Assembly (NCBI GenBank): GCA_031289425.1
Contig: JAITPM010000121.1
Location: 1-48,588 of the forward strand
DNA from: Fusobacteriaceae bacterium
Lineage (GTDB): Bacteria > Fusobacteriota > Fusobacteriia > Fusobacteriales > Fusobacteriaceae
Reading direction: 5' to 3'
DNA: 48,588 nt
Shown here: piece after piece, positions 10,668-21,016 of the stretch
Numbering within the stretch: the stretch's first letter is position 1
Layout of the letters: each line of letters opens with the position of its first letter
Program-made: the position numbers and the translations under genes
The notes under the pieces: model-generated
The model's input: the letters and a program-made list of their open reading frames with translations, nothing else
Databases searched by the model: none
What the model was told of the DNA's origin: nothing

Positions 10668-10696
10668 GTGACATATCCTGATTTGTGTGTTATAAT
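10668..10696 (+). promoter_or_regulatory. Promoter of the secretion/pilus-like operon
   Basis: GTGACA (10668-10673) and TATAAT (10691-10696) are separated by 17 bases. This is one mismatch from consensus, and it sits 31 bases before the first gene. The operon is probably transcribed by the main sigma factor. Confidence 0.8.
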
Positions 10697-10726
10697 AATA
10701 ACAATAATAAAATAACGGGGTCTAAA

Positions 10727-11281
10727 ATGGGTAATAGAAACGGAAGTATATCTTTGGAAATACTGGTAGCTGCTTTAATTGTTTCGTTTTTTGCATTTTT
10801 TGGAAATATAAGAATAAAAAATGCAAGGACAGTCGGTCAAGTAAATAATGCGAAAATCCTTATAGCAGATACATATAAAAAATATGCCACTATTTCATTT
10901 GATAAAAATGTTATTCACAGGGTTATTATTGATTATAATATTAAAATAATAGAAATTTTTGATAATATAGATAAAAAAATAGAAGAAATAGTATTGCCAA
11001 AGGAAATAAAATACGCCACTATTTATGGAGGGATAATTCAGGATAAAATGAATGCCAAAATAACGGAACAAGGAAATATAACTCCGATTTTTAGTATTTA
11101 TATATTCGATAATAAAGATATTGCAAAATATAGAATATCACTATATGGATTTGATACTTTAAAGCATCTGAGGATAAATATATATAAAAATAAAAGCGAT
11201 AAAACTGCAAATTATGCAAATATAATAAAATTTCATGATAGTTTTACAGAAGAAAGCAACAAATTATGGGAAAAAGAATAG
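10727..11281 (+). CDS. Prepilin-like protein (first gene of secretion/pilus operon)
   Basis: This 184-residue protein has a type IV prepilin-like start: a short leader MGNRNG, then SISLE and a hydrophobic helix LVAALIVSFFAFFG. The glutamate at mature position 5 (residue 11) is the hallmark of pilins. Position +1 is serine, where phenylalanine or methionine is usual. The rest is lysine-rich with predicted beta strands and resembles no family I can name; by position it could play the role of minor pseudopilin GspH. The frame extends back to 10685, inside the promoter. ATG at 10727, 6 bases after GGGG, is the start. The small exported gene and gspE follow on the same transcript. Confidence 0.75.
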   Translation: MGNRNGSISLEILVAALIVSFFAFFGNIRIKNARTVGQVNNAKILIADTYKKYATISFDKNVIHRVIIDYNIKIIEIFDNIDKKIEEIVLPKEIKYATIYGGIIQDKMNAKITEQGNITPIFSIYIFDNKDIAKYRISLYGFDTLKHLRINIYKNKSDKTANYANIIKFHDSFTEESNKLWEKE

Positions 11282-11305
11282 GGTTTATAGGAGATTTGGG
11301 TTATT

Positions 11306-11488
11306 ATGTTAAAAAGGGTATTAGTTATTTTTCTGTTCATGTTTCTTTTTTTAATTCCTAGTTTTTTGAAATCAGAAAATTATCAGATAAAAGTAATATT
11401 AAATTATAAAGGTAAAAAAACAATAAAATATTATTTTTTTTCTGATTATAAACTTAAAAATCAATTTAAAATTATCAAAGAAGGGTAA
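11306..11488 (+). CDS. Small exported or membrane-anchored protein, 60 residues
   Basis: The product is not recognised. It starts MLKRVLVIFLFMFLFLIPSF, which is either a signal peptide or a single membrane anchor, and continues with about 38 lysine- and tyrosine-rich residues that alternate like beta strands. No cysteine is present, so it is not a lipoprotein. It sits 24 bases after the first prepilin gene and 2 bases before gspE, in the same direction. That spacing suggests it is a real gene and a part of the machine, perhaps a small GspC-like or accessory envelope piece; this is inference from position only. An AGGAGA ribosome site lies somewhat far (about 13 bases) upstream. Confidence 0.55.
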   Translation: MLKRVLVIFLFMFLFLIPSFLKSENYQIKVILNYKGKKTIKYYFFSDYKLKNQFKIIKEG

Positions 11489-11490
11489 GA

Positions 11491-13116
11491 ATGAAAAATA
11501 TAATAAAGGAAATTGTATTTGATGAAACTATCTTGAATGTTATATATGATAATAATGGTTTTGAAAATAAGATAAAATTTTTATATGATAAAAGTTTTTT
11601 CAAAAATTCTGTTATTAGTGATTTAAAAGAGCAAAATTTTTATAACAAAAATTTTTTTCCATGTGAAATAAAAGGAAATCACATAAAATTAATAATTTTT
11701 GAAAATATAAATAGAGATACAATTGAATTACTTCATAAAAAAAATATAAACAATATAACGTATTTTTATGCCAATAAAGAACAGTTTTTAAAAAGCTTGA
11801 AGGAATACAATGAAATAGAAAAAAAAATCAAAATAATAGATAGCAATAATATAGGAGATATATTTGAAATTCATACAAAAGAAAATATTTACGAAATAGG
11901 AGATGAGGCAAGAAACGATTCCTATCAAGATATAAGTAACAATCTCTTTGTGGATAGCCCTATGATAATAAAGGGAGTCAGCGCTATTATTCATCAGGGA
12001 ATAGAAAAAAATGCAAGTGATATCCATATCGAAGCATTAGAAAAATATGTAAGAATTAGATATCGCATTGACGGGATTTTAATCGAAAGCAATAGAATAT
12101 CAATAAATTTATTACCGGGGATAATTTCAAGATTAAAAATCATGGCAAGTTTAAATATAACAGAGAGAAGATTACCACAAGATGGGAGTTTTCAACTTAT
12201 TAAGGATAAAGAAAAAATGGACTTTAGAATTTCTATTGTACCGACCATAAATGGGGAGAAGGCAGTTATCCGTATTCTGGATAATAGAATAATAAATGTT
12301 AATCTGGAGGATTTGAACCTAAATGAGAATAATTACAATTTATTAAAAAATGAAATAAAGAAAACCAAAGGAATTATTTTAATTTGTGGTCCTACAGGTT
12401 CCGGAAAAACCAGTTCCCTCTATGCTATCCTAAAAACGATTAATGATGGGAAATTAAATATTTCGACGGTAGAAGACCCTGTAGAATATAAATTAGATGG
12501 GATTAATCAGGTCCAATGTCAAAGCGAAATCGGAAGAGATTTTGCAACAATATTAAGAGCATATTTACGACAAGATCCGGATGTGCTGATGATTGGTGAA
12601 ATACGTGATTATGAGACTGCAGAAATAGCAATAAAATCGGCATTAACAGGTCATTTAGTATTATCTACTATTCATACGAATGATTCTATAGGAGCTATAT
12701 ATAGGTTGTTAAATATAGGCATATTACCGTATATGCTATCTGCGTCTATTAATCTTATAATATCCCAAAGGCTTGTCAGAAGACTATGCGTTCACTGCAA
12801 GATACAGGATGAAGATTTTATGGGAAAACTAGTATTATTGAATGGAAATGATGTAATCAATTCTACAGAAAAGCATATTTTTTATAAGGGAAATGGATGT
12901 GAAAAGTGCAATTTTACCGGGTATATGGGTAGACTGGGAATATTTGAAATATTACCTATTACTGACTCAATAAAAGATGCAATAGATAAAAAAATGTCTC
13001 TAAAAGAATTGGAAATTACAGCAAAAAATAATGGGTTAAAATATCTCTATGAAGATGGAATAGAAAAAGCCAGGGAAGGTTTGACATCATTAGATGAGAT
13101 AATAAAACACAGTTAA
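11491..13116 (+). CDS. gspE: Type II secretion / type IV pilus assembly ATPase (GspE/PilB family)
   Basis: This hexameric cytoplasmic ATPase drives pseudopilus or pilus assembly. The 541-residue product has Walker A GPTGSGKT at residues 300-307, an Asp box EDPVEY at 328-333, Walker B DPDVLMIGEIRD at 362-373 and a His box TGHLVLSTIHTND at 386-398. A zinc-binding pair of cysteine doublets (C433, C436, C470, C473) marks the assembly class (GspE/PilB) and not the retraction class (PilT). The N2 domain begins near ASDIHIEA, residue 175. The first 150 residues are divergent and lysine-rich. No PilT-like second ATPase occurs in the window, which favours a secretion or non-retracting pseudopilus role. 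Confidence 0.93.
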   Translation: MKNIIKEIVFDETILNVIYDNNGFENKIKFLYDKSFFKNSVISDLKEQNFYNKNFFPCEIKGNHIKLIIFENINRDTIELLHKKNINNITYFYANKEQFLKSLKEYNEIEKKIKIIDSNNIGDIFEIHTKENIYEIGDEARNDSYQDISNNLFVDSPMIIKGVSAIIHQGIEKNASDIHIEALEKYVRIRYRIDGILIESNRISINLLPGIISRLKIMASLNITERRLPQDGSFQLIKDKEKMDFRISIVPTINGEKAVIRILDNRIINVNLEDLNLNENNYNLLKNEIKKTKGIILICGPTGSGKTSSLYAILKTINDGKLNISTVEDPVEYKLDGINQVQCQSEIGRDFATILRAYLRQDPDVLMIGEIRDYETAEIAIKSALTGHLVLSTIHTNDSIGAIYRLLNIGILPYMLSASINLIISQRLVRRLCVHCKIQDEDFMGKLVLLNGNDVINSTEKHIFYKGNGCEKCNFTGYMGRLGIFEILPITDSIKDAIDKKMSLKELEITAKNNGLKYLYEDGIEKAREGLTSLDEIIKHS

Positions 13117-13131
13117 TTATGGGAGAGACAA

Positions 13132-14325
13132 GTGAGTATTTATAATTATACTGCTTTTGATACAAAAGGAAAGCAAAAACATGGTAAAAAAGAAGCAATT
13201 GATATAAATGATTTGAAAAAAATTTTAAGGTCAGAAAATTTGATATTGTTGAATGGGAAATTAGAAAAACATATATTTTTATTTAAGCAAAAAATTGATA
13301 AAAGAAAAATATTGTTTTTTACCAGAGAGGTAAAAATAATGTTAGAAAGTGGGATTGATATAATCCGGGTTCTCGCAATCGAAGAAGAAGAGATAGAGAA
13401 TTTAAAATTTAAAGAAATAATAAGAGATATAAAAAATGAGATTTTATCCGGGAAATCTATAGGGGATTCTTTTAAAAAACATGAAAATATATTTGATGAA
13501 ACTTACATCAATTACCTAAAAATCGGGGAGTCTTCGGGAACTCTCACTGAAAACATAGATAGAATATGCCAATACATAGAAATAGACTTGGAATTATCAG
13601 CTAAAATAAAAGAAGCAATGTTTTATCCTACAATAATTTTTATATTTTCTATTTTAGTAATATTTTTTTTAGTTGGGTTTGTACTTCCGAATTTTGTAGA
13701 AATGTTTATAGATAGTGGGACAGAATTACCATTACTTACTCGTGTGTTATTATTTTTTAGTGACCATATATTAAAAATTTTTATGATTTTACTATCAGTA
13801 ATATTATGTTTACGTTATTTAAGACAGCAGATATTTAAGAATCCGGAAAAAAAATATGAATATCAAAGAAAAATTTTTAATATTATTATTTTTGGAAATA
13901 TTTTTAAAAAAAACATAATCTCAAAATTATCAAAGAATTTTGCATTATTATTAAATTCCGGAATGGTGATAACATCTGTGATAGAAAATATCTCTAACAA
14001 CATTGACAATGTTTATATTGAGAAAAAATTATATAAAATGAAAATTCTAATATTATCAGGAAACGAAATCGGTAATTCTATAACCGAGTTAGGAATATTT
14101 CCAAAAAACTATATAACTATGATAAAAATTGGAGAAGAATCCGGAAAATTAGTTGAAATTTTCGAAAAAATTTCTGAAATCTCTCAAGAAGAGATGGAGC
14201 GTGAAATAAAAAGAATGCTTATTTTCATAGAGCCACTTATGATAATGATTCTTGGGATAGCTATAGGAATAGTTGTAGTTGCCATATATTTACCTATTTT
14301 TAGTATGAGTGATCTAATAGGGTAG
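13132..14325 (+). CDS. gspF: Inner-membrane platform protein (GspF/PilC family)
   Basis: GspF is the polytopic membrane platform on which GspE pushes pilin subunits into the fibre. The 397-residue product opens with YNYTAFDTKGKQKHGKKEA, the family N terminus. It has two copies of the GspF domain: one around FFTREVKIMLESGIDIIRVL, the other around LSKNFALLLNSGMVITSVI. Each ends in a KIGEESG-like motif (YLKIGESSGTL and MIKIGEESGKL). Three long hydrophobic segments fit the known topology. The start is GTG at 13132 with GGGAGAG about 7 bases upstream; the gene follows gspE by 15 bases. A 64-base gap separates it from the major pseudopilin. Confidence 0.93.
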   Translation: MSIYNYTAFDTKGKQKHGKKEAIDINDLKKILRSENLILLNGKLEKHIFLFKQKIDKRKILFFTREVKIMLESGIDIIRVLAIEEEEIENLKFKEIIRDIKNEILSGKSIGDSFKKHENIFDETYINYLKIGESSGTLTENIDRICQYIEIDLELSAKIKEAMFYPTIIFIFSILVIFFLVGFVLPNFVEMFIDSGTELPLLTRVLLFFSDHILKIFMILLSVILCLRYLRQQIFKNPEKKYEYQRKIFNIIIFGNIFKKNIISKLSKNFALLLNSGMVITSVIENISNNIDNVYIEKKLYKMKILILSGNEIGNSITELGIFPKNYITMIKIGEESGKLVEIFEKISEISQEEMEREIKRMLIFIEPLMIMILGIAIGIVVVAIYLPIFSMSDLIG

Positions 14326-14336
14326 ATTCCTTTGTT

Positions 14337-14364
14337 TTTACTTTAACATATTACATATTATAAC
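14337..14364 (+). promoter_or_regulatory. Possible internal promoter for the major pseudopilin
   Basis: TTTACT (14337-14342) and TATAAC (14359-14364) are separated by 16 bases in the longest gap of the first half of the operon. An extra promoter would suit the most abundant subunit, but the match is modest. Confidence 0.35.
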
Positions 14365-14389
14365 TATTAAATTAAATGGGAGGACAAAC

Positions 14390-14917
14390 ATGTCAAAGAA
14401 CAGAGAAAGAAAAAAAGAGTCAGGTTTTACATTAGTTGAGTTGGTAGTAGCGATAGCAATTATTGGAATCTTATCAACACTTATAACTCCAAAGGTTAGG
14501 GAGCAATTAGCAAAGGGAAGAGATATGAGAGGAATATCATTACTTGGTGCAATGAGAACAGCATCAGAATTGTATTATATTGAAAAAGGTACAGCTCCAC
14601 TTGATGATATCACAAATGGAGATAATCCTGTCAATATAAAAGCCGCTATAGATAATATATTGGAATACCTGGATCCAAAGGCGGAAACCATGTTAAAAAC
14701 CGGAAAAATAGAAATAGGAGGCACTAGAAAAGAAGTAACCGGTGGCGGTGGAGTCGAAGAAGCAAGTAAAGAAATAACCTTTGGTGGAGAAATAGGATTT
14801 ACATTTATCAATCCTGATTCAGCAGCTACAAATAATGGTGATGGTGTATATATTTGGTTTTCTTCTGATGTCGGCAAAGAATATGATTCCAGTGGTAAAA
14901 AATGGTCAAGTTATTAA
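14390..14917 (+). CDS. gspG: Major pseudopilin (GspG/PilA-like)
   Basis: This is the probable main subunit of the pseudopilus or pilus. The 175-residue precursor has a 12-residue basic leader ending in Gly, then the textbook FTLVE start with the glutamate at mature +5 and a hydrophobic helix VVAIAIIGILSTLITP. The following KVREQLAKGRDMRG to LYYIEKG region resembles the GspG alpha-spacer helix. The C-terminal half contains a glycine-rich stretch (GGGGVEEA) and ends NNGDGVYIWFSSDVG to WSSY, like the calcium-loop end of GspG, although binding residues cannot be assigned by eye. GGGAGG lies 8 bases before the ATG. Its 3' end overlaps the peptidase gene by 16 bases. Confidence 0.88.
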   Translation: MSKNRERKKESGFTLVELVVAIAIIGILSTLITPKVREQLAKGRDMRGISLLGAMRTASELYYIEKGTAPLDDITNGDNPVNIKAAIDNILEYLDPKAETMLKTGKIEIGGTRKEVTGGGGVEEASKEITFGGEIGFTFINPDSAATNNGDGVYIWFSSDVGKEYDSSGKKWSSY

Positions 14918-15384
14918 ATAATTTATCTTATTTAAATATTTGGTTAATTATGATATTATGTATAATTATTTTTTTACAAGATATAAAAAATATGATAATT
15001 CCCAATAGATATAATATTTTACTTTTGTTATTTGCTATATTTCATCGTGGATTTATGATAAAAAATATCGAAAATGGAATAATTGGTGCTGGTATTTATA
15101 CACTACCCTTAATATTTATCTATGGATATGTTTCCGATATTCTAAAAAAAGATGCAATTGGTTTTGGAGATATCAAGTTGATGATAAGTTTTGGATATAT
15201 ATTAAAATATAGATATATAATGGAAGTATATTTTTATTATCTTATTGCTTTTGTTCTGGGAGGAATTTTTTCAATATTAATAATAATTATTTATAAAAAT
15301 ACCAAAAAAGAAATTCCTTTTGCACCATTTTTAATAACAACTTTTCTATATTTCTTTATAAGGGAGACGTTTTTCTATGTATAA
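14902..15384 (+). CDS. pilD: Short prepilin peptidase (A24 family, no methylase domain)
   Basis: This inner-membrane aspartic protease cuts the leaders of prepilins. The 160-residue product is highly hydrophobic with about five or six membrane segments. It shows both catalytic motifs: the first aspartate in LQDIKNMIIPNR (Asp27) and the second in GFGDIKLM (Asp90). Standard PilD/GspO proteins are about 250 to 290 residues, with an N-terminal half that methylates the mature pilin and carries paired cysteines. That half is absent here, so methylation is either missing or done by another protein. It overlaps gspG by 16 bases and the next gene by 8, so expression is coupled. Confidence 0.88.
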   Translation: MVKLLNNLSYLNIWLIMILCIIIFLQDIKNMIIPNRYNILLLLFAIFHRGFMIKNIENGIIGAGIYTLPLIFIYGYVSDILKKDAIGFGDIKLMISFGYILKYRYIMEVYFYYLIAFVLGGIFSILIIIIYKNTKKEIPFAPFLITTFLYFFIRETFFYV

Positions 15385-15850
15385 AAGATATCCTAAAAAG
15401 AGAGCAATGTCTTTCATAGAAATAATAGTGGCTATGGGCATATTTTTAATTGCAATTATTCCTATTATTGAATTCAATAATAAACTTTTTACTATGAATA
15501 GAAGTATACTTCAAATGGAAATAGAAGAAATGATATTTAATAATGTCGTATCATTAGTCAAATCGAAAGATTTTGATATTATTTCTAATAAAAAAGGTGA
15601 AAATAAATATCAATTCATATTAGAAGACGATCAAGTCTCACTATATCCTATAGATGAGCTGGTAGATGGGGTTCAAAGTAAAAATTTGGCGTTATTAGGC
15701 AGTGAATTCATAATAATCATCGAAGATTTACAGATAGAAAATATAAATAAATTTGATAAATTAAAGATAATAAAGTTTATTTTGCAAGGAAAAAAGAAAA
15801 AATATTCATGTATGAAGTTTATAACTTATTATGATAAATATAATTGGTAG
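15377..15850 (+). CDS. Minor pseudopilin, GspI-like position
   Basis: The 157-residue product has a basic leader MYKRYPKKRA followed by MSFIE and a hydrophobic helix IIVAMGIFLIAIIPIIEF. Glutamate sits at mature +5. The residue before the cut is alanine where nearly all prepilins have glycine, so cleavage may be slow or may tolerate Ala. The sequence MSFIEIIVAMGIF is like the start of GspI or PilV minor pilins, and the gene order (after G, before a J-like gene) also fits GspI. The rest is not recognisable by eye. GGGAG lies 10 bases upstream of the ATG. Confidence 0.72.
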   Translation: MYKRYPKKRAMSFIEIIVAMGIFLIAIIPIIEFNNKLFTMNRSILQMEIEEMIFNNVVSLVKSKDFDIISNKKGENKYQFILEDDQVSLYPIDELVDGVQSKNLALLGSEFIIIIEDLQIENINKFDKLKIIKFILQGKKKKYSCMKFITYYDKYNW

Positions 15851-15896
15851 TAAAAATAGTGATAAAGAGGCTTTATTTCTTATTGGGGGAGTGATT

Positions 15897-16493
15897 ATGC
15901 ATTTTGAGAAAAACAGTGGAATGACATTGATCGAAGTAATGACAGTAATTGGACTTATGGGCATATTAATTATGCTCATACATCCTACCCTTTATACTTT
16001 TTATAAAAGTAGAATAACATTTGGAAAGATAAATTCATACGATTTGAAAAATGCCAGATTGATAGATATCATAGAAGAAGCTATAAATAATTCTTTTAAA
16101 GGAGAAGAATCATTTTCCGGAAAAGAATATCTGAAAAACGGAAAAGGAATATATATAGTTGATAAAACTGCAATCAAAATATTAGATGATGATTTTTTTA
16201 AAAACAATGAAAAAAGTGGAAATTTTTTATTTTTAGAAATGCCTATAATGAAAAATAAAATAATAACTAATAGATATTTAGCATTTAAAATCATAGGGGG
16301 CAATCTATCCATGATACAATACTCTATCTCTGAAAATAAAATAAAGCAAACAAGAGAAGAAGTCATATTGGATAATATAACCGGAAATTTTTCAATTGAT
16401 GAAAATGTTATAAAAATTTTACTTATACATAAAGAATTTGATACAGAAAAATACATAGAAGGCATTGGAGAAATAGGGAGAAATTATGAATAA
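15897..16493 (+). CDS. Minor pseudopilin, GspJ-like position
   Basis: The 198-residue precursor has the leader MHFEKNSG and a mature start MTLIEVMTVIGLMGILIMLI, with glutamate at +5, a clear pseudopilin signature. Length and place fit GspJ or PilW. The open frame reaches back to 15831, but GGGGGAG at 15885-15891 lies 5 bases before the ATG at 15897, which also puts the leader at the correct length. The next gene overlaps its end by 8 bases. The globular part is lysine- and isoleucine-rich and cannot be matched further by eye. Confidence 0.75.
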   Translation: MHFEKNSGMTLIEVMTVIGLMGILIMLIHPTLYTFYKSRITFGKINSYDLKNARLIDIIEEAINNSFKGEESFSGKEYLKNGKGIYIVDKTAIKILDDDFFKNNEKSGNFLFLEMPIMKNKIITNRYLAFKIIGGNLSMIQYSISENKIKQTREEVILDNITGNFSIDENVIKILLIHKEFDTEKYIEGIGEIGRNYE

Positions 16494-17073
16494 AAATGGG
16501 TTTATAATTGTAATTGTAGTTTTTTTAATTACTTTTATGATGGGAATATTTTTAATAAACTACAAAATTATAAATGGAAAAAGTGTAAGATTAAAGAGTA
16601 AAATTGATGGTTATATGGAAAGAGAAGAAATGAATAATATTGAAACTATTATTTTTCATGAAATGTATTCTATAGAAGATAGAATAAAAAATGATATTTA
16701 TAAAGAGGCAATAGAGCATTTTATAAAAAATAAAGAAGATATAATTTTGTGGGAAATAATTCTTCCGGTTGATAACAATGATTATAGTCTTGGTGGATAT
16801 AAAATAAAAAGTATTTTATCACAAAAAAAAGAAATTTTTTCGGATACAAGCCTTATTACTCCTCAAAATTCTATAATAACTGTATTAAATAAAGGAAAAG
16901 GTGGTGAATTTACTATCAATTTAGAAAAGTTAATTAAATCATACTATAGCGATATAACCAATCAAATGACATTTAAGATATCTATTATACTTGAATATAA
17001 TATAGGAAATACTGATATTACATTACCGGATATTAAATCCATAAATGAGATGGTTATAGATGGATATAATTAA
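16486..17073 (+). CDS. Minor pseudopilin-like protein lacking Glu5 (GspK/PilX-like)
   Basis: The 195-residue product begins MNKNG, then FIIVIVVFLITFMMGIFLIN. It looks like a prepilin leader and helix, but there is no glutamate at mature +5. Lack of that glutamate is a known trait of the tip pseudopilin GspK, and PilX-type proteins also occupy this operon position. At 195 residues it is much shorter than GspK (about 300), so the large inserted domain of GspK would be missing. A plain membrane-anchored protein is the alternative. It overlaps the previous gene by 8 bases and the next by 14 bases. Confidence 0.6.
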   Translation: MNKNGFIIVIVVFLITFMMGIFLINYKIINGKSVRLKSKIDGYMEREEMNNIETIIFHEMYSIEDRIKNDIYKEAIEHFIKNKEDIILWEIILPVDNNDYSLGGYKIKSILSQKKEIFSDTSLITPQNSIITVLNKGKGGEFTINLEKLIKSYYSDITNQMTFKISIILEYNIGNTDITLPDIKSINEMVIDGYN

Positions 17074-18334
17074 AAAAATATTAAATGGAAATAAATACAA
17101 AATAGTTTTATTGGATGACATAGAGAGCACAGGCGAAATAAATAATCAAAAGAATAAAAAAGATAAAAACTATATATTATTATTAGAAAACGAGTATTTT
17201 GAAATTATAAAAATAGATATTGAAACTGATTTGGATATAGATGAAAGAGAGCTGGTAATAGAATCAGAAATAGAAAATAAAATTTTGAATTATAATTCGA
17301 TTGATTATATTGAAAAAGAAATTATTATAGCAGAAAATACAGAAAACATAATGCTTATAATTATCTTACTCAAAATAGAAAAAGCAATAGAACTAATAGC
17401 TCTGTCGAAAGAGAAAAATATTGATATTATAGGAATAATTCCTGTATTTATGTATAAGTATCTACTTAAAAATTTTGATGATAATAGTATTTTTATAGAT
17501 ATCGGTATAACAAGAACTCTTTTAGCTGTATATTTAGATAAAAAAATTTTTAATATTGATATGTTCTCAATAGAAAAAAATGAAATTTATAATAGCACAA
17601 CAGAATTTTCTACATTTTTGGAAAGAATAAACCTTTTGTCGGAAAATATAGATGATAAAAAAGAATCAATAAAAAAAATTGAGATTTTAGAAAAAGATGA
17701 AGAAATAATTTCGAAATTAGCAAAAGAATCGTTACTTGATTATGATATATCAATTAAAAATTTTCAAGGGGAACTCTTTTTAAATAAACAAAATATTGAG
17801 AATATTAATTTTATACCTCATGATTACAAAGAACAGATAAAAAATAAGAAAATAAAAAAATTTATAGTTTTATCAGGAAGTATTCTTATAATCGCAGAAT
17901 TATTCGTTTTTTTTATTTTAAATTATTATGAAAACAATATTTTAAAAAATAAAAATGAGAATGAAAATCAATTGGCAGTTTTAATAAGAACAATAAATGA
18001 AAAAAGAAGTGAAATCGAAGGAATAGAAAATTACGAAGAAAAAATAGCTAATTTAGAGAATAAACTCACAAATAAAAAATTATATTTTACAGAAATATTA
18101 AAAAATATTCAGATTGAAAATACTAAATATATACATATTACATTTATAGAATATTCAGATAAAGGAAATATTCAAATAATAGGAACCGCAATTGATGATG
18201 GAGATATATATACATTTCAAGATAATATATCAAAAAATCATAGCTTTGTATCAATTATTCAAGATTACATAAGAGAAAAAGATGGAATCTATGAATTTAA
18301 AATGGATATAGGAGTAAAAATTGGAAATGATTAA
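17060..18334 (+). CDS. GspL-like (PilM-PilN fusion) assembly protein
   Basis: The 424-residue product combines an actin-like cytoplasmic domain with a membrane-anchored part. The segment SIFIDIGITRTLLAVYLDKK (143-162) resembles the phosphate loop of PilM/GspL folds. A single membrane helix lies at about 267-289, preceded by NFIPHDYKEQIKNKKIKK, which resembles the N-terminal PilN motif. A periplasmic coiled coil (about 291-340) and a small globular end follow. This is the architecture of GspL, which holds GspE at the membrane. The protein is very rich in Ile, Lys, Glu and Asn. It overlaps its neighbours on both sides (14 bases each). Family assignment rests on architecture and position. Confidence 0.7.
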   Translation: MDIIKKILNGNKYKIVLLDDIESTGEINNQKNKKDKNYILLLENEYFEIIKIDIETDLDIDERELVIESEIENKILNYNSIDYIEKEIIIAENTENIMLIIILLKIEKAIELIALSKEKNIDIIGIIPVFMYKYLLKNFDDNSIFIDIGITRTLLAVYLDKKIFNIDMFSIEKNEIYNSTTEFSTFLERINLLSENIDDKKESIKKIEILEKDEEIISKLAKESLLDYDISIKNFQGELFLNKQNIENINFIPHDYKEQIKNKKIKKFIVLSGSILIIAELFVFFILNYYENNILKNKNENENQLAVLIRTINEKRSEIEGIENYEEKIANLENKLTNKKLYFTEILKNIQIENTKYIHITFIEYSDKGNIQIIGTAIDDGDIYTFQDNISKNHSFVSIIQDYIREKDGIYEFKMDIGVKIGND

Positions 18335-19193
18335 AAAATTTGATAAATTAAAAAACATTTATAAAGAAAATATAAAAAATATATTTGTTATTGTCTCAAT
18401 GCTCGCACTAATCTTTGTTTTTATGTACAAATTTATAATTTCACCTATTAATAATATAAAGGATATAAAAAATCAAATAAAAAATACTGAAAAAAAAATA
18501 CTTAATCAATCCAATGAATTAGAAAAAGTTAATATGATATATAATAAAAGATTAGAAGAAAATATAAGGGATACAAAAATATATGAGGATCTCTTGAAAA
18601 AATATAAGGAAATTTCTTTTGAAAATATAGGTATATTTACCCAGTATATAGAAAAAATTGCTACATTTAACAAAATAGAAATTGTATCTATAGGTGGTCT
18701 TGAAAATTATCAGGATAAAAATGAATTAAACTTTAATAGATTTGGATGTCCTTATGAATTGAAAGGAACAACAGAAAATATAAATAGATTTTTATATTCG
18801 CTAGAACATTCATTATATTTTTTATCTATTTTGGATGCTCCAATAACTATAGAAATCAATAATAATATTGTTAAACTTATATTTAAAATTTCAGTCAATA
18901 TTATTAATGATGCAAATGATTCAGATGAAAAAATAAGTATAGGGAATGATGAAGATGAAAATTATTTTGAAAAGAAAAATATAAAAACAACAACAACACA
19001 AATGTTTTTATTAAATTATAAAATAGAAAATATAAAAACTTATGATGTAATAGGTATAAATAATAAAAAATATGTAGTTATAAAATTTATAAACAATAGA
19101 AAAAAAATATATTTAGAAAATGAAATCATAACAATTGATAATTTAAAATATAAAATAAAAATAAAAGCAGATAATGTTTATCTGGAAATATAA
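18321..19193 (+). CDS. GspM/PilO-like assembly protein
   Basis: The 290-residue product has a short cytoplasmic tail, one membrane helix (about 21-42), a coiled coil (about 45-95) and a ferredoxin-like periplasmic region (about 100-195). This is the plan of PilO and GspM, partners of PilN/GspL. The last 90 residues, after an acidic linker with NDSDEKISIGNDEDE, form an extra small beta-rich unit that might be a PilP- or GspC-like domain; this is speculative. A TTG at 18321, 6 bases after GGAG, or the ATG at 18327 can serve as start; the two differ by two residues. The gene overlaps the GspL-like gene and is followed by the secretin after a short gap. Confidence 0.68.
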   Translation: MEMIKKFDKLKNIYKENIKNIFVIVSMLALIFVFMYKFIISPINNIKDIKNQIKNTEKKILNQSNELEKVNMIYNKRLEENIRDTKIYEDLLKKYKEISFENIGIFTQYIEKIATFNKIEIVSIGGLENYQDKNELNFNRFGCPYELKGTTENINRFLYSLEHSLYFLSILDAPITIEINNNIVKLIFKISVNIINDANDSDEKISIGNDEDENYFEKKNIKTTTTQMFLLNYKIENIKTYDVIGINNKKYVVIKFINNRKKIYLENEIITIDNLKYKIKIKADNVYLEI

Positions 19194-19247
19194 AATTTTA
19201 TAAAGTTTAATAAATATTATTAAATATTGTAATATATGGGAGTTAAA

Positions 19248-20906
19248 ATGAAAAAATACATTGTTTTTTTAATGATTTTTATTAATTTTTTTTATAGTTA
19301 TGCTAAAAATAAATTCTACGACATAAAATTAGAAAGTGATTTTTATTTAGAAGAAGTTTCTCTTACCGATGCTCTTTCTGTGTTATCAAAGGAATATCAT
19401 ATCTCAATAATTGCAGATGAAAGTGCAAAAAATTTGATTTTGGATATCAATTTTTCTAAGGGAACAACAGTAGATGAAATTATAAATTCAATTGTATCAA
19501 CCAATAACCTAAAACAAAAAGAGGTGGGGAATTCTATAATTTTATCTAAAAAAATAAAAACGATAGATGGAGAAGTGACTTTTGCAGGAAAAGTATTAAT
19601 AAATGGATACAATAATGGAATCGAAGGTGTAAAAGTAACGATTTTAAAAAGTTTTCTAAGTCCCATATATACTATGCATGGTGGAAATTTTGTTATAAAT
19701 GATATAAGTCCGGGGATTTATATCGTAAAATTTGAAAAAGATGGTTATCTGCCCCTTGGAGAAATAATAAATTTGGAAAGTAGTTCAATAAATATGACTT
19801 TTAATCTGGAAAAAAATAATTCTATAAAAATAAATAAACAACCTGAAGATAAAGTAATTACAAAATCTGAGGCAACAATTATTGATGGAGAAAAATATTA
19901 TACTGAACGAATAAAATTATTTAAAATGCCACCAGAAGAAATAAAAGAAATTTTGGAGAGTACATATGTCGGATTATTAAGAGTTACTCCCGTAACTAAA
20001 ATATCTAGTGTAATTTTATTTGGAAAAAAAGAGGTTGTAGATGCGGCTAAAAAAATTATAAAAGATTTAGATAGTGATTTGAAACAAGTTAGGGTAAGTT
20101 CTCAAATATTAGATGTATCAGATAATTTGTTTGAAGAATTAGGTTTTGACTGGGTATATAGTAATAATGGAGAAATATCAGATGCTAAGGGGGTCAATGG
20201 GTCTCTATTAAAAAATGCTGTAATAGATGGGATAGGATCAAATTTTTCATCCGGAATAGGGTTAATAAGACAGTTTAATGGTGGAAAAGATGTGCTCAGT
20301 ATTGGTATGCATATTCTGGAGTCCAATCAAGATTTGGTCATCAGTGCAATACCATCTATTCTCATTGCAGATGGTGAAGAGGGAGAATTTAAAATTGCAG
20401 AAGAAGTAATTGTCGGAGAAGAAAAAGATGAGAATAGTGAAACGAGTAAAACTACTTATACTCCATTATTTAGAGAGGCTGGAATTATTCTAAAAGTACA
20501 GCCGTTTATACAGGACAATGATTCTATCGTATTAAAAGTAAAAATCGAAGTAAGTAATTTTAAATTAAAAAAGGCCGAATCTACTGAAGAGACAGGAACG
20601 TATAATGCAGAAGGCGGCTCAAAGATTGGAAGATCTATAGAGACTACAGTAAAAATAAAAAATGGTGAAACAATTTTTATTGGCGGATTGAAAAGGGCTA
20701 TTGTGCATAATTTGGAAAGTAAGGTACCGATTTTAGGAAATATCCCGATTTTAGGAAATTTGTTTAAAAAAAGATCCATAAAAAATGAAGCTACAGATAT
20801 CTATATAAAATTAAAAGTAGATATTCCGGAAAATTCAAACGAAGAATTTGATAATATGGAGATTCATAAAAATTATAATAAAATAAAAAATAAAAGAATA
20901 TATTGA
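19248..20906 (+). CDS. gspD: Outer-membrane secretin (GspD/PilQ family) with an inserted domain
   Basis: Secretins form the outer-membrane gate for pseudopilus or pilus systems. The 552-residue product has a signal peptide (1-19). An STN-like N0 domain follows (about 33-102, EEVSLTDALSVLSKEYHISI). Next is a beta-sandwich segment like a carboxypeptidase-regulatory domain (about 108-190, with GNFVINDISPGIYIVKFEKD). One N-type ring domain (about 217-285) precedes the secretin core (about 285-535). The core keeps VPILGNIPILGNLFKKR near the end, the family signature. Fewer N domains than in standard GspD are present. The ATG at 19248 is chosen because the upstream ATG at 19236 overlaps the GGGAG ribosome site. 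It is the last gene of the operon. Confidence 0.9.
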   Translation: MKKYIVFLMIFINFFYSYAKNKFYDIKLESDFYLEEVSLTDALSVLSKEYHISIIADESAKNLILDINFSKGTTVDEIINSIVSTNNLKQKEVGNSIILSKKIKTIDGEVTFAGKVLINGYNNGIEGVKVTILKSFLSPIYTMHGGNFVINDISPGIYIVKFEKDGYLPLGEIINLESSSINMTFNLEKNNSIKINKQPEDKVITKSEATIIDGEKYYTERIKLFKMPPEEIKEILESTYVGLLRVTPVTKISSVILFGKKEVVDAAKKIIKDLDSDLKQVRVSSQILDVSDNLFEELGFDWVYSNNGEISDAKGVNGSLLKNAVIDGIGSNFSSGIGLIRQFNGGKDVLSIGMHILESNQDLVISAIPSILIADGEEGEFKIAEEVIVGEEKDENSETSKTTYTPLFREAGIILKVQPFIQDNDSIVLKVKIEVSNFKLKKAESTEETGTYNAEGGSKIGRSIETTVKIKNGETIFIGGLKRAIVHNLESKVPILGNIPILGNLFKKRSIKNEATDIYIKLKVDIPENSNEEFDNMEIHKNYNKIKNKRIY

Positions 20907-20987: not shown

Positions 20988-21016
20988 TTGACAGAATAAA
21001 ATAGGAATGGTATAAT
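20988..21016 (+). promoter_or_regulatory. Consensus promoter of the tRNA operon
   Basis: TTGACA (20988-20993) and TATAAT (21011-21016) are separated by exactly 17 bases, a perfect sigma-70 type promoter. It lies 24 bases before the first tRNA. Confidence 0.92.

What the first reader, a model, noticed from the sequence alone, without database searches (positions are those of the whole stretch)
10668..20906. Compact twelve-gene secretion/pilus operon of mixed type II and type IV character
One promoter precedes twelve co-directional genes: five prepilin-like proteins, a 60-residue exported protein, GspE, GspF, a prepilin peptidase, a GspL-like PilM-PilN fusion, a PilO/GspM-like protein and a secretin. 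There is no PilT retraction ATPase, no clear GspC and no pilotin. The parts are very divergent, lysine- and isoleucine-rich, and short. The machine could be a reduced type II system with its own exported substrate, a pseudopilus for DNA uptake, or a fusobacterial variant not covered by standard classifiers. What it exports is not shown.
Basis: partly seen in the sequence, partly recalled or inferred. Interest (0 to 1): 0.7.

Follow-up and report, generated by a model that had tools for sequence, protein, structure and literature searches.

The report
Streamlined fusobacterial type IV pilus operon
The twelve genes encode a retractable hair-like machine (a type IVa pilus), most likely used to take up DNA; it looks like a hybrid with a protein-secretion system because four of its standard parts have been shortened and fused into two, which may be why these parts have been reported as missing in Fusobacterium.

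Summary
In detail: 12 co-directional genes (10727-20906 +), five prepilins, a 60-aa exported protein, PilB, PilC, prepilin peptidase, PilM-PilN, PilO and secretin. The 'mixed T2SS/T4P' reading is not. The locus is a derived type IVa pilus (T4aP). Close relatives (Propionigenium maris and six other genera) carry separate pilM-pilN-pilO-pilP-pilQ; P. maris PilB passes the curated T4aP cut-off, and the retraction ATPase 'missing' here lies elsewhere in the same genome (412.8 bits; cut-off 319.1) beside comEA. In the Fusobacterium-type clade (window genus, F. mortiferum, F. gastrosuis and others) PilM and PilN fused once (the PilN start motif survives inside the fusion), PilM lost its nucleotide-binding ends, and PilO gained a C-terminal domain that probably is PilP. 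No GspC or GspL family match exists in the genome. The T2SS look is therefore secondary: a re-made GspL-like protein. A 2026 review lists PilM, PilO and PilP as absent in F. nucleatum; the relatives suggest they are fused or eroded instead. PilM-PilN fusion itself has a precedent (C. difficile). Function, from comEA/comEC/dprA content and published F. nucleatum pilQ/comEC knock-outs: DNA uptake (inferred). New variant of a known kind.

The parts
10668..10696 (+). promoter-like site GTGACA-17-TATAAT with TG extension, upstream of the operon
   Evidence: (11 of 12 matches); consensus match only
10727..11281 (+). minor prepilin (MGNRNG|SISLE...), 184 aa; its relative lies upstream of pilT-pilB in P. 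maris
11306..11488 (+). 60-aa protein with Sec-type signal peptide, conserved at this place in Fusobacterium-type operons (17 sequences), function unknown
11491..13116 (+). PilB extension ATPase (T2SSE 421.9 bits; best solved relatives are T4P PilB)
13132..14325 (+). PilC inner-membrane platform protein (T2SSF, two domains)
14390..14917 (+). major prepilin (N_methyl 35.7 bits), ...KESG|FTLVE
14902..15384 (+). prepilin peptidase, 160 aa, A24 peptidase domain only; the N-terminal methylase domain of sister PilD is absent
15377..15850 (+). minor prepilin (RA|MSFIE)
15894..16493 (+). minor prepilin (SG|MTLIE)
16486..17073 (+). minor prepilin without Glu5 (NG|FIIVI), GspK/PilX-like tip subunit
17060..18334 (+). 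PilM-PilN fusion, 424 aa
17804..17818 (+). INFIP: the former N-terminal motif of PilN (sisters: M..INFLTPEY), now internal, at the fusion junction
18321..19193 (+). PilO (residues 1-194) with C-terminal extension
19002..19190 (+). six-stranded C-terminal domain of the PilO protein, probable fused PilP core
19236..20906 (+). PilQ-type secretin: signal peptide, N0, carboxypeptidase-regulatory-like domain (19587-19778), N domain, secretin domain (20316-20825)

Best explanation
The locus is a derived type IVa pilus (T4aP) operon, and most likely the DNA-uptake pilus of this fusobacterium. PilB powers assembly of the pilins on PilC; the unlinked PilT (in a pilT-hemN-comEA-hslO cluster) powers retraction through the secretin, and DNA is handed to ComEA, ComEC and DprA. 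Its unusual look comes from a reduction in the Fusobacterium-type clade: separate PilM and PilN became one GspL-like protein whose PilM half lost both nucleotide-binding ends; PilO acquired a C-terminal domain that most likely is the former PilP core, so that one protein joins the inner-membrane platform to the N0 domain of the secretin; PilD lost its methylase domain; PilB lost the c-di-GMP-binding N-terminus. Shown by computation: gene content and order, PilM-PilN fusion, homology of PilM, PilN and PilO to the separate sister proteins, PilT in the genome, absence of T2SSC/T2SSL matches. Inferred: PilO-PilP fusion (sequence evidence moderate), loss of ATP binding, operation of the machine, and the DNA-uptake function.
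For: Sister operons in seven genera have separate contiguous pilM-N-O-P-Q; their PilM and PilN pass Pfam cut-offs, P. maris PilB passes the T4aP PilB cut-off (680.7 vs 675.65) while GspE does not (622.2 vs 630.25). Profiles started from the separate sister proteins find the window fusion: PilM 1.2e-43, PilN 2.4e-43, PilO 8e-47. AlphaFold/Foldseek: fusion to PilM (5eou, 1.7e-9) ahead of GspL (1yf5, 4e-6), periplasmic part to GspL/PilN; PilO model to T4aP PilO 3jc8 and 2rjz. The fused state needs one change on a secretin tree, nested among separate states. Own PilT 412.8 bits vs cut-off 319.1; ComEA-like HhH protein next to it; comEC and dprA present. No T2SSC or T2SSL match in the genome. Published: F. 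nucleatum cluster of 11 genes plus unlinked pilT (PMC1924603), pilQ and comEC needed for transformation (Sanders 2023, as cited in PMC12940168).
Against: The secretin scores higher with GspD than PilQ models (132.5 vs 104.8 bits) and PilC slightly higher with GspF. The link of the window's PilO C-terminal domain to PilP is weak by sequence alone (single-pair hhalign E 0.024; shuffled null reached in 1/150, natural slices in 3/75); only with bridging g6 sequences is it clear (0/150, 0/75), and a profile search of solved structures found no PilP. The g4 group (F. gastrosuis type) lacks that domain. DNA uptake was shown in F. nucleatum, not here; comEC and dprA occur in most bacteria, and a same-genus genome without the operon (G051) keeps them.
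Confidence: 0.85

Rival explanations
1. A reduced type II secretion system that exports folded proteins, for example the 60-aa protein, with the pseudopilus as a piston.
For: Secretin and PilC score slightly higher with GspD and GspF models; the PilM-PilN fusion looks like GspL; several tip-like minor prepilins including a GspK-like one.
Against: No T2SSC or T2SSL family member in the genome; PilT present; sister operons have separate PilM and PilN and a T4aP PilB above cut-off. The 60-aa protein is equally small (58-75 aa) in all relatives and always tied to the operon, which fits a component at least as well as a substrate.
Confidence: 0.05
2. A T4aP used mainly for adhesion or twitching rather than DNA uptake.
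For: PilT-powered T4aP commonly do this; the review PMC12940168 discusses polar pili and adherence.
Against: comEA lies beside pilT; F. nucleatum pilQ is reported as needed for transformation, no surface pilus expression had been shown, and the review states that Fusobacterium does not display twitching.
Confidence: 0.15
3. A decaying, non-functional locus in which the platform genes are eroding.
For: PilM is shortened and further eroded in g6; one same-genus genome lost the operon and keeps only a secretin fragment next to an integrase; one g5 genome (G028) carries broken copies.
Against: All 12 window frames are open; the fused genes are kept in the same order in four genera, with invariant residues at the junction; the ATPase P-loop, peptidase aspartates and prepilin motifs are intact in the sequence.
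Confidence: 0.07

Closest known systems
Fusobacterium nucleatum type IV pilus / natural competence locus (Desvaux 2005; FNP_2389-2399 in PMC1924603; Sanders 2023)
   Same: same order pulE-pulF-pulG-A24 peptidase-...-pulD, similar protein sizes, unlinked pilT with hemN-comEA-hslO
   Different: the locus was described as lacking PilM, PilO and PilP; in relatives the genes in that place are shown here to be a PilM-PilN fusion and PilO; PilB here keeps a longer N-terminus. F. nucleatum itself was not tested.
T4aP pilMNOPQ platform (P. aeruginosa, M. xanthus, T. thermophilus)
   Same: PilM, PilN, PilO and PilQ homologues in the same order, with PilB, PilC, PilD, PilT
   Different: PilM-PilN fused and PilM shortened; PilP probably fused to PilO; no separate PilP; peptidase without methylase domain
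Type II secretion GspL/GspM/GspC
   Same: single-chain PilM-like plus PilN-like protein resembles GspL; PilO resembles GspM
   Different: derived from separate PilM and PilN within Fusobacteriota; no GspC match; PilT present
Clostridioides difficile PilM-PilN fusion (PMC6916266, citing Melville and Craig 2013)
   Same: PilM and PilN joined in one protein
   Different: monoderm, without secretin or PilP; whether the two fusions share an origin was not tested directly, but separate genes in sister fusobacteria argue against it

Membership tests
Type IVa pilus | extension ATPase PilB of T4aP type | tested here: inconclusive
   best NCBIfam model of the window protein is type IV-A PilB (500.1) but below cut-off 675.65; sister P. 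maris PilB 680.7 passes
Type IVa pilus | retraction ATPase PilT in the genome | tested here: met
   TIGR01420 412.8 bits vs cut-off 319.1, L068:7766-8791
Type IVa pilus | PilM, PilN, PilO assembly complex | tested here: met
   homology to separate sister PilM, PilN and PilO at 1e-43 to 1e-47; folds; the Pfam PilM profile alone misses the fusion
Type IVa pilus | PilP linker to the secretin | tested here: inconclusive
   C-terminal domain on PilO resembles the PilP core: g6 member 19.2 bits, E 1e-4; window-type sequences alone only suggestive
Type IVa pilus | secretin PilQ | tested here: met
   secretin domain 123.3 bits, N0 region matches PilQ 4ar0; GspD models score higher than PilQ models
Type IVa pilus | class III prepilins with prepilin peptidase | tested here: met
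   N_methyl and A24 matches; five prepilin motifs
Type IVa pilus | retractable surface filament | not testable with these tools
   needs microscopy
Type II secretion system | GspC | tested here: not met
   no PF11356 match in the genome; E. coli and Caulobacter controls ring
Type II secretion system | GspL family protein | tested here: not met
   no PF05134 match in the genome; resemblance is by fold only
Type II secretion system | no dedicated PilT in the genome | tested here: not met
   PilT present and no other secretin or PilB for it to serve
Type II secretion system | secreted folded substrates | not testable with these tools
   needs secretome analysis
Gram-negative natural transformation machinery | T4P plus ComEA, ComEC and DprA | tested here: met
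   comEA-like HhH protein adjacent to pilT (best model comEA, 33.6 vs cut-off 152.35); comEC split over two contig ends; dprA 260 bits

The most novel reading that the evidence does not exclude
In the Fusobacterium-type clade the four-protein T4aP platform PilM-N-O-P was collapsed into two proteins, PilM-PilN and PilO-PilP, with loss of PilM's nucleotide site and, in parallel, of PilB's regulatory N-terminus: an independent re-invention of a GspL-like platform that works for DNA uptake without a nucleotide-binding PilM.
Probability: 0.55. Interest if true: 0.55.

Novelty: new variant of a known kind. Interest (0 to 1): 0.45.

Why it matters
F. nucleatum, a much-studied oral and tumour-associated bacterium, is described as transforming without PilM, PilO and PilP. 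If its operon matches that of its relatives F. gastrosuis and F. mortiferum, PilM, PilN and PilO are there but fused or eroded beyond curated profiles, so models of a 'minimalist' pilus need correcting. The clade also offers a natural series, from separate to fused to nearly lost PilM, to test what PilM and its ATP binding do in pilus assembly, and it shows how a T2SS-like layout can arise from a pilus.

Tried and rejected
A genome-contig scan with the single PilB sequence found no relatives because the chosen peptides were variable; the secretin alignment worked. Sequence-profile searches of solved structures with the PilM-PilN alignment, the PilO C-terminal domain and the sister PilP gave only chance matches. 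A first hhalign comparison with three PilP sequences was empty; with 14 sequences it became informative. Whole-model Foldseek of the PilO protein did not report a PilP match for the C-terminal domain; no cropped model could be run. The ATPase at G000:C72 was considered as a second pilus motor and rejected: its neighbours are conjugation genes. Papers on PilM-PilN fusion in fusobacteria or on a carboxypeptidase-regulatory-like domain in pilus secretins were looked for and not found in the held library; the original Desvaux 2005 and Sanders 2023 papers are not held.

Full report
What is there. The window (a 48.6-kb contig of a 2.45-Mb genome; nearest named relatives are Fusobacteriaceae) holds twelve co-directional genes at 10727-20906 between a RecQ-like helicase gene (minus strand) and a tRNA cluster. 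Profile searches identify PilB/GspE (T2SSE 421.9 bits), PilC/GspF (167.6), a prepilin (N_methyl), an A24 prepilin peptidase and a secretin (123.3 bits); the 17060-18334 and 18321-19193 proteins hit no pilus family. Against NCBIfam every curated T4P and T2SS equivalog is missed: PilB 500 of 675 needed, GspE 478 of 630, GspF 268 of 424, GspD 132 of 351, PilQ 105 of 284. This is the source of the 'mixed' impression.

Relatives resolve it. In 98 Fusobacteriota genomes PilB-type ATPases (T2SSE relatives) occur in 95. In Propionigenium maris (G053) and in g8, g9, g11, g14, g15 and g29 the machine has five separate genes pilM-pilN-pilO-pilP-pilQ. PilM of g9 and g13 passes the Pfam PilM_2 cut-off (57-59 vs 27 bits) and PilN the PilN cut-off (24.7 and 32.2 vs 22.8), and P. 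maris PilB passes the curated type IV-A PilB cut-off (680.7 vs 675.65) but not GspE's (622.2 vs 630.25). The class of the machine is therefore T4aP.

PilM-PilN fusion. Profiles started from the separate sister proteins and iterated find the 424-aa window protein as both PilM (1.2e-43) and PilN (2.4e-43). In the alignment, the sister PilN start 'M..INFLTPEY' lines up with 'NINFIPHDY' inside the fusion, and F251... P253 are nearly invariant and invariant in 14 fused proteins. The PilM half has lost the N-terminal 'G.IDIG' segment and the C-terminal 'GG..L..G' segment that in PilM contribute to the nucleotide site, and in g6 nearly all of PilM is gone (the functional reading rests on established actin-fold knowledge). 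The AlphaFold model (pLDDT 84) matches PilM (5eou, 1.7e-9; 2ych) better than GspL (1yf5, 4e-6), and its periplasmic domain matches GspL and PilN. The Pfam PilM profile finds no match in the window's genome, which can explain why surveys call PilM absent. A secretin tree puts all 19 fused-type operons in one group nested among 14 separate-type ones (one change, 91/99; rooting is by midpoint, but distant families fall outside). A PilM-PilN fusion also occurs in another family, G063 (532 aa), and is reported for C. difficile (PMC6916266). That PilM and PilN together correspond to GspL is textbook (PMC4471445).

PilO and a probable PilP. PilO homology is firm (8e-47; fold match to T4aP PilO). Fused-type PilO of g1, g5 and g6 carries about 70 extra C-terminal residues, absent from separate sister PilO, predicted as a six-stranded domain after a disordered linker. 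Separate sister PilP genes lie between pilO and pilQ, and no separate gene does so in fused-type operons. [quoted passage not shown] Profile-profile comparison of the extension with the PilP core scores above all 150 column-shuffled and all 75 natural controls when g6 is included, and above 149 of 150 and 72 of 75 without it. I take the fusion as probable (about 0.7), not proven. The g4 group has a short unrelated tail instead. In T. thermophilus, too, an unrelated protein (PilW) takes the PilP place (PMC3724824), so this position is evolutionarily loose.

Other reductions. The peptidase lacks the A24_N methylase domain present in sisters. PilB of P. maris has a c-di-GMP-binding N-terminal domain (41.5 vs 38 bits) not found in the window PilB; residues before the ASDIH-type motif fall from 207-217 in separate-type PilB to 166-192 (window genus and part of g5) and 42-68 in most others. 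The N-terminal domain of PilB/GspE is the known contact of GspL/PilM (PMC8389850), so the joint shortening of PilB and PilM is suggestive; it was not tested statistically. The secretin carries a carboxypeptidase-regulatory-like domain between N0 and the next N domain, in the window and in g9, and the region aligns across 21 relatives.

PilT and competence. The genome encodes PilT (412.8 bits vs 319.1) in a pilT-hemN-comEA-hslO cluster (hemN and hslO named from sequence and by analogy), as in the F. nucleatum comM-pilT-hemN-comEA-hslO operon (PMC11705814), and has comEC and dprA. It has no T2SSC or T2SSL match, one secretin and one PilB. Published work, read through papers that cite it, reports that pilQ and comEC deletions abolish transformation in F. 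nucleatum, while PilM, PilO and PilP are described as absent (PMC12940168), and that no pilus had been seen on the surface (PMC11705814). The F. nucleatum cluster (FNP_2389-2399) has the same order of E, F, G, peptidase and D and sizes close to g4 (PMC1924603). I could not test F. nucleatum directly.

Verdict. A T4aP with a rebuilt inner-membrane platform, most likely for DNA uptake. It works like a T4aP; by membership it meets the PilT, PilM-N-O, secretin, prepilin and peptidase criteria, with PilP and the PilB cut-off inconclusive, and fails three T2SS criteria. New variant of a known kind; interest 0.45.

Noticed in passing
L189:11315-14023 (genome G051, same genus): The only secretin left is a 245-aa C-terminal PilQ fragment next to a phage-type integrase, followed by conjugation genes (VirB4/TraG-like); no pilB or pilC in this 99%-complete genome. 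It looks like an integrative element inserted at pilQ with loss of the operon, while pilT, comEC and dprA remain.
   Followed up: partly
window 11306-11488: The 60-aa signal-peptide protein has 17 relatives, all in fused-type operons, and sits where P. maris has pilT (prepilin-pilT-pilB). No family match; it is a candidate new pilus component rather than an exported substrate.
   Followed up: partly
window 19587-19778: Secretin with a carboxypeptidase-regulatory-like domain between N0 and the next N domain, also in relatives; no paper found describing it in a pilus secretin.
   Followed up: partly
window 14902-15384: Prepilin peptidase without methylase domain, unlike sister genera, so mature pilins are predicted to be unmethylated.
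   Followed up: partly
L192:1606-3204 (G063, another family): Second PilM-PilN fusion (532 aa, with a longer PilM), probably independent of the Fusobacterium one.
   Followed up: partly
L089 and L064 (genus g12): Compact pilB-pilA-pilD-pilQ locus (preceded by a PilT-like gene in L089); pilC lies on another contig and no PilM-N-O gene was found beside it.
   Followed up: partly
L080 (G028): Degenerate copy of the operon: short pilB, and split pilMN and pilQ.
   Followed up: no
downstream of pilQ in L072, L086, L087: A pfkB-family kinase gene (followed in L072 and L086 by ispF/YgbB) lies downstream of pilQ in relatives but not in the window, where a five-tRNA cluster with a perfect promoter match (20988-21016) lies instead.
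   Followed up: partly
L003 (G000 contig C72): TrbB/VirB11-like ATPase beside TraG-like genes: a conjugation cluster in the window's genome.
   Followed up: no
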